NCBI RefSeq assembly: GCF_003001675.1
Contig: NZ_PVYW01000005.1
Location: 310,001 to 374,000 of the forward strand
Direction: 5' to 3'
Length of the DNA stretch: 64,000 nucleotides
Source: Cohnella sp. SGD-V74
GTDB taxonomy: Bacteria; Bacillota; Bacilli; Paenibacillales; Paenibacillaceae
The position numbers were made by a program, and so were the translations under genes. The notes under the pieces were generated by a model that ran no database searches, was not told the origin of the DNA, and saw only the letters and a program-made list of their open reading frames with translations. Below are positions 9,172 through 10,132 of this stretch, piece by piece (the stretch's first letter is position 1; every line of letters starts with the position of its first letter).

Positions 9172-9200
9172 TTGACATCCTTAGCCGATCGGCGTACTAT
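9172..9200 (+). promoter_or_regulatory. sigma-A promoter of the c-di-AMP riboswitch transcript
   Basis: TTGACA (9172-9177), 17 bp spacer, TACTAT (9195-9200), seven bases before the riboswitch. Confidence 0.8.
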
Positions 9201-9204
9201 AAAT

Positions 9205-9340
9205 ATACGCTTAATTTCCGTCCGCTTGCGGAGGGAAAACGGGGGAACCGATCATTCAGGGGCGAATCGTTCGCGCAGAACGTAGGGTACCATCTACCCG
9301 AGTCCGTCAGCTAACCTCGTCGGCAGAGATGGGTCTGAGA
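9205..9340 (+). ncRNA. c-di-AMP riboswitch (ydaO/yuaA class)
   Basis: The conserved blocks of the ydaO/yuaA aptamer occur in order: CGCTTAAT (9208), ACGGGGGAACCG (9239), GGGGCGAATCG (9259), GTAGGG with its partner CTACCCGAGTCCGTCAG, and GCTAACCTCGT (9310). The class is usually an OFF switch: c-di-AMP binding favours the terminator at 9364-9385. Such switches normally control potassium, osmolyte or cell-wall genes. Here the next gene is a cyclase-like protein, which is unusual. Exact boundaries are approximate. Confidence 0.9.
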
Positions 9341-9363
9341 ATTCGATATTTATTTTCATTTCG

Positions 9364-9385
9364 GACCCTTATTCAGGGTCTTTTT
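9364..9385 (+). terminator. expression-platform terminator of the c-di-AMP riboswitch
   Basis: GACCCT (9364-9369), loop TATTC, AGGGTC (9375-9380), TTTTT, placed between the aptamer and the ribosome site of the downstream gene. Confidence 0.8.
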
Positions 9386-9421
9386 GCGTTCTCTTAATGA
9401 CCCGAACAGGAGGTGTTAACG

Positions 9422-10069
9422 ATGCAGCAGGCGGAATCCGTCAGAACGACTTACGAAAGCTTGATGGAGCGAACGAGGCAGCTCGTGCAGCGCAAGGAGG
9501 AGACGGAGGCGTTCGTTCCGTCCGAGGAACAGTACGCCGTCCTTCACTTGACCGTCGAAGCCGACGGGCAGGAAGGCGGGGATCGCGACTTGAGCCGGGC
9601 GCAGATCGGCGTCAGGCGGTTCGTAACCGTCATCGCGCAGATCGTCTCCGGCTGGGGAGGCCAGCTGATCGAAGCGAGCCACCAGTCGTATACGGCTATC
9701 TTTCCGATGTCGGAGGCAGATGCGGTCGGACGGAGCTGTCTGTGCGGCGTGCAGATCGTGCAGGCGATCGACGCCGTCATCAATCCGTCCCTTGCGGAGG
9801 AAGGCATTCCGTTTCGCTTCCGCGGCGGCGTCGGCGTCAGCATGGGGCGCGTATACAGCTTCCATACGGGGCTGTCTCTCCCGGCGAACAGCCTGTATTA
9901 CGGCGAAGCGATGACGAGCGCGGTCGAATACGCCAACATGACGGACGGACAGGTGATCGTGGACAAAGTCGTCAAGGAGCACTTCGAGCGCTCCGGATCG
10001 GAATATCAAGTTCAATTCGTGCCGTACCGCTATCATGAATGGGTTGGTTATCGGTTTCATATCGGCTGA
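9422..10069 (+). CDS. degenerate class III nucleotidyl cyclase-like protein
   Basis: A 215-residue cytosolic protein whose pattern follows the class III adenylate/guanylate cyclase fold: beta strand AVLHLTVEAD, helix RRFVTVIAQIVSGWGGQLIE, strand AIFP, helix DAVGRSCLCGVQIVQAI, strand FRFRGGVGVSMGRV, then YYGEAMTSAVEYAN and GQVIVDKVVKEHF. The metal-binding positions look lost (no Asp in place of the FxD of the first strand; SHQS where GD is expected), so catalysis is doubtful and a nucleotide-sensing or scaffold role is possible. ATG 9422 follows AGGAGGTG. It is the only gene under the c-di-AMP riboswitch and ends at a strong terminator. Confidence 0.72.
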   Translation: MQQAESVRTTYESLMERTRQLVQRKEETEAFVPSEEQYAVLHLTVEADGQEGGDRDLSRAQIGVRRFVTVIAQIVSGWGGQLIEASHQSYTAIFPMSEADAVGRSCLCGVQIVQAIDAVINPSLAEEGIPFRFRGGVGVSMGRVYSFHTGLSLPANSLYYGEAMTSAVEYANMTDGQVIVDKVVKEHFERSGSEYQVQFVPYRYHEWVGYRFHIG

Positions 10070-10085
10070 CGGAACGCTTGGTCGG

Positions 10086-10132
10086 GCCCTCCCGGCGTCA
10101 TCGGAAGATGACGGCAGGGGGGCTTTTTTTTA
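10086..10132 (+). terminator. terminator of the riboswitch-controlled gene
   Basis: Long hairpin from GCCCTCCC (10086) around GTCATC-GGAA-GATGAC to GGGGGGC (10123), followed by seven or more T residues. Confidence 0.88.

What the first reader, a model, noticed from the sequence alone, without database searches (positions are those of the whole stretch)
9172..10132. c-di-AMP riboswitch controlling a catalytically degenerate cyclase-like protein
The ydaO/yuaA aptamer is textbook in its conserved blocks and has its own promoter and terminator. Its single target is not a transporter or wall enzyme but a class III cyclase-like domain without metal-binding Asp residues. This links c-di-AMP to another nucleotide-type sensor and may reveal a new effector.
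Basis: partly seen in the sequence, partly recalled or inferred. Interest (0 to 1): 0.82.

Follow-up and report, generated by a model that had tools for sequence, protein, structure and literature searches.

The report
c-di-AMP switch controls dead cyclase
In a few bacteria of one genus, an RNA switch for the osmotic-stress messenger c-di-AMP controls a protein that is predicted to have the shape of a cyclic-nucleotide-making enzyme but has lost its catalytic parts, so an old enzyme fold seems to have been reused for a new, still unknown job.

Summary
Window 9198-9340 is an Rfam c-di-AMP (ydaO/yuaA) riboswitch (78.1 bits, cut-off 38) with its own promoter, a pseudoknot/anti-terminator/terminator arrangement and one target gene, 9422-10069 (215 aa). 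The target matches no Pfam or NCBIfam family above cut-off. Its AlphaFold model, built from orthologues only, has the class III nucleotide cyclase fold (best Z 20.2). Both metal Asp, the transition-state Asn and Arg, and the base-contact positions are replaced in 7 of 7 orthologues: a pseudo-cyclase. It occurs in 7 of 37 genomes of its genus (Cohnella by its nearest named relative), and 7 of 7 have the riboswitch upstream. Sixteen TrhO loci without the gene lack the riboswitch too. Nearest outside relatives are two short cyclases of Pycsar-like antiphage operons (53.6 and 45.1 bits, against at most 13.9 for ordinary class III cyclases), but other Pycsar-type cyclases score no better than ordinary ones, and the genus has no PycTM effector (0 of 37). 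Most likely a repurposed, non-enzymatic binding protein made when c-di-AMP is low. Ligand and partner are unknown.

The parts
9172..9200 (+). sigma-70-type promoter, TTGACA - 17 nt - TACTAT
   Evidence: TTGACA invariant in 7 of 7 orthologous leaders
9198..9340 (+). c-di-AMP riboswitch aptamer RF00379
   Evidence: 78.1 bits, E 1.9e-16
9290..9295 (+). aptamer loop CCATCT, 5' strand of a pseudoknot
   Evidence: 42 of 42 cells paired with 9327-9332 in 7 leaders, invariant (so no covariation)
9327..9332 (+). AGATGG, 3' strand of the pseudoknot; shares two bases with the anti-terminator
9331..9337 (+). GGGTCTG, 5' strand of the anti-terminator
   Evidence: 49 of 49 cells paired with 9362-9368; one U-G to U-A change
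9362..9368 (+). CGGACCC, 3' strand of the anti-terminator and 5' arm of terminator T1
9363..9385 (+). intrinsic terminator T1 with T run
   Evidence: hairpin folds in 7 of 7 leaders, -9.9 to -12.0 kcal/mol
9422..10069 (+). pseudo-cyclase gene, 215 aa (P0001): class III cyclase homology domain without catalytic residues
10084..10131 (+). terminator closing the transcription unit
   Evidence: 42-base hairpin, -30.7 kcal/mol, then a T run

Best explanation
A c-di-AMP OFF-riboswitch drives a single gene that encodes a catalytically dead class III cyclase domain, probably derived from a short stand-alone cyclase of the Pycsar (PycC) type and kept for a non-enzymatic job. Shown by sequence or prediction: the aptamer, the mutually exclusive pseudoknot/anti-terminator and the terminator, the fold (predicted), the loss of the catalytic positions, and conservation together with the riboswitch. 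Inferred from the known class: when c-di-AMP is high (K+-replete) the aptamer closes, T1 forms and the gene is off; when c-di-AMP is low (osmotic stress, K+ shortage) the anti-terminator forms and the protein is made. Inferred and weakest: the protein dimerises as cyclase domains do, and uses its conserved surfaces (GWGGxLIE, SCxCGxQI, TGLxxP...LY, C-terminal PYRxHEWVGY) to bind a protein partner of the osmotic or envelope response rather than to make a nucleotide.
For: Riboswitch. Fold: AlphaFold from seven orthologues only, pLDDT 80.1 and pTM 0.75; Foldseek best 2w01_B E 6.0e-10; VIA-align Z 18.1-20.2 in the 50 rows shown, all cyclases. Dead active site in 7 of 7 orthologues: metal 1 = T/K/T/S/T/T/I (E/E/E/E/Q/E/Q in the other register), metal 2 = Q/Q/H/N/H/N/H, transition-state Asn = T/A/V/S/E/A/K, transition-state Arg = invariant Glu, base-contact Lys = A/A/A/T/A/T/G, base-contact Asp = invariant Leu. 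Purifying selection: dN 0.18-0.41; dS 1.14-2.97 in the 11 of 21 pairs where it could be estimated. Linkage to the riboswitch: 7 of 7 with both, 0 of 16 gene-less TrhO loci with the riboswitch. Pycsar link: A1-profile scores 53.6 and 45.1 bits for cyclases that lie beside a PycTM-type gene (PADLOC match for L017; by eye for L037), against at most 13.9 for the 600-aa class III cyclases; tree support 91/88; the solved PycC 7r65 heads the A1 profile search of the PDB (E 0.0011) and has the highest query TM-score, 0.66, of the 50 Foldseek rows shown (rank 25 by E). Not the obligate partner of an ordinary class III cyclase: G156 carries it and has no PF00211 match. Direction of the switch: B. subtilis, passages of PMC5575661.
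Against: No partner or ligand is known, and no adjacent gene is shared by all seven genomes. Pycsar origin is only suggestive: other Pycsar-type cyclases, among them the second cyclases of the same two operons (2.6 and 7.8 bits), L040, L043 and L049 (1.3-10.5 bits), score no better than ordinary ones; the tree branch is not starred and the stem is long (3.11 changes per column); grouping with ordinary cyclases is not rejected (p-AU 0.092); 7r65 is not among the 50 VIA rows shown. Only 7 of 37 species have the gene, so it is dispensable. Two of five AlphaFold models were poor (pLDDT 52.5 and 51.2).
Confidence: 0.5

Rival explanations
1. Nucleotide sensor: the degenerate pocket at the dimer interface binds a cyclic or linear nucleotide and passes the signal on, as degenerate GGDEF domains do for c-di-GMP (recalled analogy).
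For: Fold with a nucleotide site; some positions at or next to the old pocket are invariant (E84, L158, Y159, G161, E169).
Against: Metal, transition-state and base-contact positions are replaced in 7 of 7, and the stretch after strand 1 (47-55), which holds triphosphate in cyclases (recalled), varies strongly.
Confidence: 0.25
2. Regulatory partner: it forms heterodimers with an active class III cyclase of the cell and tunes it.
For: Cyclase domains dimerise; 30 of 37 genomes of the genus, including 6 of the 7 carriers, have a PF00211 match.
Against: The carrier G156 (99% complete) has no PF00211 match, yet its copy is 71% identical. A cyclase too divergent for PF00211 is not excluded.
Confidence: 0.1
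3. Remnant or regulator of antiphage defence: an orphan Pycsar cyclase kept as decoy, inhibitor or phage sensor.
For: Nearest relatives lie in Pycsar-like operons.
Against: No PycTM match in any of 37 genomes (PycTIR-type effectors were not searched); no gene near it that I recognise as defence (mostly by eye); riboswitch control by an osmotic messenger in 7 of 7.
Confidence: 0.1
4. Still an enzyme, with an unusual metal-free or relocated active site.
For: None direct; fold and purifying selection only.
Against: All six canonical catalytic or base-contact positions are replaced, the Arg by an invariant Glu.
Confidence: 0.04

Closest known systems
c-di-AMP (ydaO/yuaA) riboswitch, RF00379
   Same: Full-length aptamer well above the gathering score, with an intrinsic-terminator platform
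   Different: Target is a pseudo-cyclase; six of seven orthologous leaders carry a second terminator in tandem
Pycsar pyrimidine cyclases PycC (PADLOC PDLC02367; cyclases of L017 and L037)
   Same: Short stand-alone cyclase domain, 18% identity to each of the two in alignment A2; best profile scores outside the orthologues
   Different: No catalytic residues, no effector gene beside it, riboswitch-controlled
Class III adenylate/guanylate cyclases (PF00211; CyaB 3r5g, Cya2 2w01)
   Same: Fold, Z about 20
   Different: No metal Asp, no Asn/Arg pair; only 1 of 7 orthologues gives even a weak PF00211 match (E 0.014)

Membership tests
RF00379 c-di-AMP riboswitch | covariance-model score above the gathering cut-off | tested here: met
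   78.1 against 38 bits; 79.4-84.9 bits in the 6 other orthologous leaders
RF00379 c-di-AMP riboswitch | expression platform that the aptamer could switch | tested here: met
   pseudoknot strand and anti-terminator strand overlap by two bases; terminator hairpin in 7 of 7. In the MAFFT register T1 pairs in only 35 of 49 cells because its loop varies in length; folded one by one all 7 form it. Switching itself was not tested
[quoted passage not shown]
   needs in-line probing or ITC
class III nucleotide cyclase | cyclase homology domain fold | tested here: met
   predicted model: VIA Z 20.2 over 176 residues, rmsd 2.9, to 3r5g
class III nucleotide cyclase | two metal-binding Asp | tested here: not met
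   no Asp at either site in 7 of 7; site 1 is E (5) or Q (2) in the other register
class III nucleotide cyclase | transition-state Asn and Arg | tested here: not met
   variable residue and invariant Glu
class III nucleotide cyclase | PF00211 above cut-off | tested here: not met
   1 of 7 members at E 0.014, the other six none at E 1
Pycsar PycC | sequence closest to PycC rather than to ordinary class III cyclases | tested here: inconclusive
   two PycC-like cyclases score far above ordinary ones, but other Pycsar-type cyclases do not; tree 91/88 but p-AU 0.092 for the alternative; the PADLOC model also hits ordinary cyclases
Pycsar PycC | adjacent PycTM or PycTIR effector | tested here: not met
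   neighbours in the window are TrhO, gluconate dehydrogenase subunit 3, GMC oxidoreductase, TatC; PF18967 in 0 of 37 genomes; PycTIR not searched genome-wide
Pycsar PycC | the two conserved catalytic Asp | tested here: not met
   absent; PycC enzymes have two (passages of PMC11224242)

The most novel reading that the evidence does not exclude
A cyclase of antiphage (Pycsar) ancestry was stripped of catalysis and recruited into the c-di-AMP osmotic regulon as a signalling receptor or adaptor: a pseudo-cyclase effector made when c-di-AMP falls, controlled in most relatives by one aptamer acting on two tandem terminators through a relay of alternative pairings.
Probability: 0.26. Interest if true: 0.72.

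Novelty: new variant of a known kind. Interest (0 to 1): 0.5.

Why it matters
Reviews place the c-di-AMP riboswitch near genes for cell-wall metabolism, osmoprotectants, K+ uptake and sporulation (passages of PMC7288161 and PMC5575661). A riboswitch-linked pseudo-cyclase would add an unknown effector to the c-di-AMP regulon, give a genetic handle (regulated by a known ligand, dispensable, absent from sister species) for finding what dead class III cyclase domains do, and be a case of a probable defence enzyme turned into a housekeeping regulator.

Tried and rejected
Chance match to the riboswitch: rejected (E 1.9e-16, conserved in 7 of 7). Spurious ORF: rejected (orthologues 52-71% identical to P0001; third codon positions differ most, 111-148 against 36-81 at positions 1 and 2; dN far below dS, though dS is near saturation and gave no value for 10 of 21 pairs). 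Transposed cassette: unlikely. Six of seven copies sit beside TrhO; in G141 the neighbours are a gene of AI-2E-transporter type and a MerR-type gene, but TatC- and copper-ATPase-type genes are still within 7 kb, so a local rearrangement could explain it (these names are by eye). Presence needs 4 changes on a TrhO tree of 22 genomes; gain and loss cannot be told apart, but the shared site favours losses.

The single-sequence PDB search put 9vyg 'Adaptor protein' first (E 1.1e-4); with the seven-sequence profile it drops to E 0.062 and it is not among the 50 rows shown of either fold list, so I take it as chance (not followed up). NCBIfam gave P0001 a match at E 0.0071 to NF033743 (15.9 bits, cut-off 215), taken as chance. 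No relatives in phages or plasmids by tblastn at E 0.01, nor in viral contigs (two short peptide patterns only). The genome search with A1 on 392 genomes of the order found 3 orthologues (own genome included) plus the G054 cyclase. The one genome-contig scan found only Cohnella terricola, the same locus as G156. The A2 profile on 398 genomes of the class found many ordinary cyclases and a third cyclase beside a PycTM-type gene (L098, by eye), which the A1 profile scores at only 18.3 bits, with L109 at 17.3. The 7r65-based register puts E46 rather than T44 at metal site 1; position 46 is Gln in 2 of 7. A BFVD search gave mostly cyclase-domain or unnamed proteins of phages and giant viruses, seven at E <= 0.001, no specific lead.

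Literature: no paper of the library held both 'c-di-AMP riboswitch' and 'Cohnella'. Three held 'c-di-AMP riboswitch', 'ydaO' and 'adenylate cyclase'; in the passages I saw the last term refers to di-adenylate cyclase or to a structural comparison, not to a riboswitch target. One search (two of five terms) gave 35 papers; of the 15 listed none shows an occurrence of 'c-di-AMP riboswitch', 20 were not seen. Listings gave no paper on a riboswitch-controlled pseudo-cyclase by title; most of those papers were not opened. PMC4886424 (cyclase-like proteins; one passage) does not mention Firmicutes or Paenibacillus; PMC2447327 held none of the terms asked. Block 2010 and Nelson 2013, the papers on the target genes, are not held, so novelty of the target is not proven.

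Full report
WHAT IS THERE. The window lies in an 8.24 Mb assembly, G000, whose nearest named relative here is Cohnella terricola (71% identity for the protein; contig of the same length as in G156). At 9198-9340 (+) is a full-length RF00379 aptamer, 78.1 bits, the only Rfam match of the window above a gathering score. A TTGACA-17-TACTAT promoter overlaps its start, a terminator follows at 9363-9381, then a 215-codon gene, 9422-10069, with AGGAGG 8 nt before its ATG, and a -30.7 kcal/mol hairpin with a T run at 10084-10131. The unit is monocistronic. The upstream divergent gene is TrhO; downstream lie a gluconate dehydrogenase subunit 3 with a Tat signal, a GMC oxidoreductase and TatC.

THE SWITCH. 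In all seven orthologous leaders the loop CCATCT can pair with AGATGG just 3' of the aptamer core (42 of 42 cells), and GGGTCTG, which shares two bases with that strand, can pair with C[AG]GACCC, the 5' arm of the terminator (49 of 49 cells; one U-G to U-A change). The strands are nearly invariant, so this is conservation, not covariation. That the two pairings exclude each other suggests an OFF switch: aptamer closed, pseudoknot formed, terminator on. The ydaO riboswitch of B. subtilis is described as an OFF switch that terminates transcription when bound (passages of PMC5575661). Ligand binding here is inferred from the family.

A SECOND TERMINATOR. Six of the seven leaders carry a second hairpin (T2, -18.1 to -23.7 kcal/mol) before the gene; the window's own leader lacks it. 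In all six the 3' arm of T1 is complementary to the 5' arm of T2 (-11.6 to -13.6 kcal/mol), so one aptamer could control both terminators by a relay: when the anti-terminator takes the 5' arm of T1, the freed 3' arm can take the 5' arm of T2. In G141 both arms changed and still pair with each other (-11.6), while its T1-3' arm pairs less well with four of the five other genomes' T2-5' arms (-7.9 to -8.5; the fifth, G171, gives -11.8), and the others' T1-3' arms pair less well with its T2-5' arm (-7.5 to -8.6). Against this as proof: a duplicated terminator would give such complementarity without function, and the T1 hairpin of G141 also pairs best with itself (-14.1 against -8.4 to -11.3 with the other genomes' T1-5' arms).

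THE PROTEIN. Pfam and NCBIfam give nothing above a cut-off; one of seven orthologues touches Guanylate_cyc at E 0.014. AlphaFold, fed with the seven orthologues and no canonical cyclase, gives pLDDT 80.1 and pTM 0.75 (two of five models poor). Foldseek finds 181 PDB chains at E <= 0.001; the 50 listed are all class III cyclases. VIA-align gives Z 18.1-20.2 for its 50 rows, all cyclases. Aligned with two canonical relatives, the metal Asp pair, the Asn/Arg pair and the base-contact Lys and Asp are replaced in 7 of 7 orthologues; the Arg is an invariant Glu (the motif positions are recalled from the class III literature, the two metal Asp also from passages of PMC11224242). dN is 0.18-0.41; dS is 1.14-2.97 where it could be computed (11 of 21 pairs). 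The protein is therefore maintained, but not as a class III cyclase. Stretches rich in invariant residues are GWGGxLIE, SCxCGxQI, TGLxxP and PYRxHEWVGY.

DISTRIBUTION. Orthologues: 7 of 37 genomes of the genus, and none elsewhere among 295 genomes of the family by single-sequence search (its eighth hit, G054 at 24% identity, is a Pycsar-like cyclase) or 392 of the order by profile. The draws overlap. All seven copies follow an RF00379 riboswitch on the same strand (L009 and L011 are one locus). Twenty-two of 37 genomes have a full-length TrhO match, the 7 carriers among them. At 16 TrhO loci without the gene beside them (15 of the 30 non-carrier genomes, plus the TrhO locus of G141) no riboswitch passes the cut-off and no piece of the gene is found (about 1.5 kb each side, less at contig ends). 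In the closest relative, G260 (TrhO 92% identical), TrhO and the dehydrogenase subunit stand 168 bases apart, in G083 272, against about 1.1 kb here. Riboswitch and gene come and go together.

ANCESTRY. But the second cyclases of these same loci (2.6 and 7.8 bits) and the Pycsar-type cyclases of L040, L043 and L049 (1.3-10.5) score no better than ordinary ones, so the link is to one branch, not to Pycsar cyclases at large. A third PycTM-linked cyclase (L098, by eye) scores 18.3. PADLOC PycC models hit 5 of 5 orthologues given (of 7 in hand; best model E 3.5e-8 to 7.6e-4), but that model also hits ordinary cyclases. In the PDB the solved PycC 7r65 is the best profile match (E 0.0011) and has the highest query TM-score (0.66) of the 50 Foldseek rows, at rank 25 by E; it is not among the 50 VIA rows shown. 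In a tree of 29 domains the orthologues join the L017/L037 cyclases at 91/88 on a long branch; joining the ordinary cyclases instead is not rejected (p-AU 0.092). Pycsar ancestry is the best guess, not proven. No PF18967 (PycTM) match exists in any of 37 genomes, so there is no PycTM-type Pycsar system to serve.

PARTNERS. One simple model is a heterodimer with an active cyclase. PF00211 matches occur in 30 of 37 genomes but not in the carrier G156, so they are not required. The other seven c-di-AMP riboswitches of this genome precede a KdpD-like Usp protein plus a TrkA-type protein, a TrkH, a 3D/G5 wall protein, two NlpC/P60 proteins, a KamA-family aminomutase, and a HAD phosphatase plus mannitol-1-phosphate dehydrogenase: K+, osmolytes and wall. 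If its switch works like theirs, the pseudo-cyclase is made in the same regime, which is why I place it in the osmotic/envelope response as a binding protein. That last step is inference.

VERDICT. A real, conserved and unusual riboswitch target; the fold and dead active site are well supported by prediction and alignment, the ancestry moderately, the function only by inference.

Noticed in passing
L011 to L016, leaders upstream of the pseudo-cyclase gene: A second intrinsic terminator follows the first in 6 of 7 orthologous leaders; the 3' arm of the first can pair with the 5' arm of the second, a possible relay. Absent in the window's genome.
   Followed up: partly
L003:1501-3005: Another c-di-AMP riboswitch of this genome precedes a KamA-family aminomutase, with a leader that also looks tandem-terminated (by eye). 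A lysine-2,3-aminomutase under a Na+ plus c-di-AMP riboswitch pair is known from Dehalobacter (passages of PMC9337991).
   Followed up: partly
L004:1501-3143: A c-di-AMP riboswitch precedes a HAD phosphatase and a mannitol-1-phosphate 5-dehydrogenase gene, suggesting mannitol as an osmolyte under c-di-AMP control.
   Followed up: no
L001:257-1654: A c-di-AMP riboswitch precedes a stand-alone KdpD-like Usp-domain protein followed by a TrkA-type K+ transport protein.
   Followed up: no
L017:817-2889 and L037:1252-3449: Pycsar-like loci with two different short cyclases and one PycTM-type membrane protein gene, one of them on a Desulfosporosinus plasmid.
   Followed up: partly
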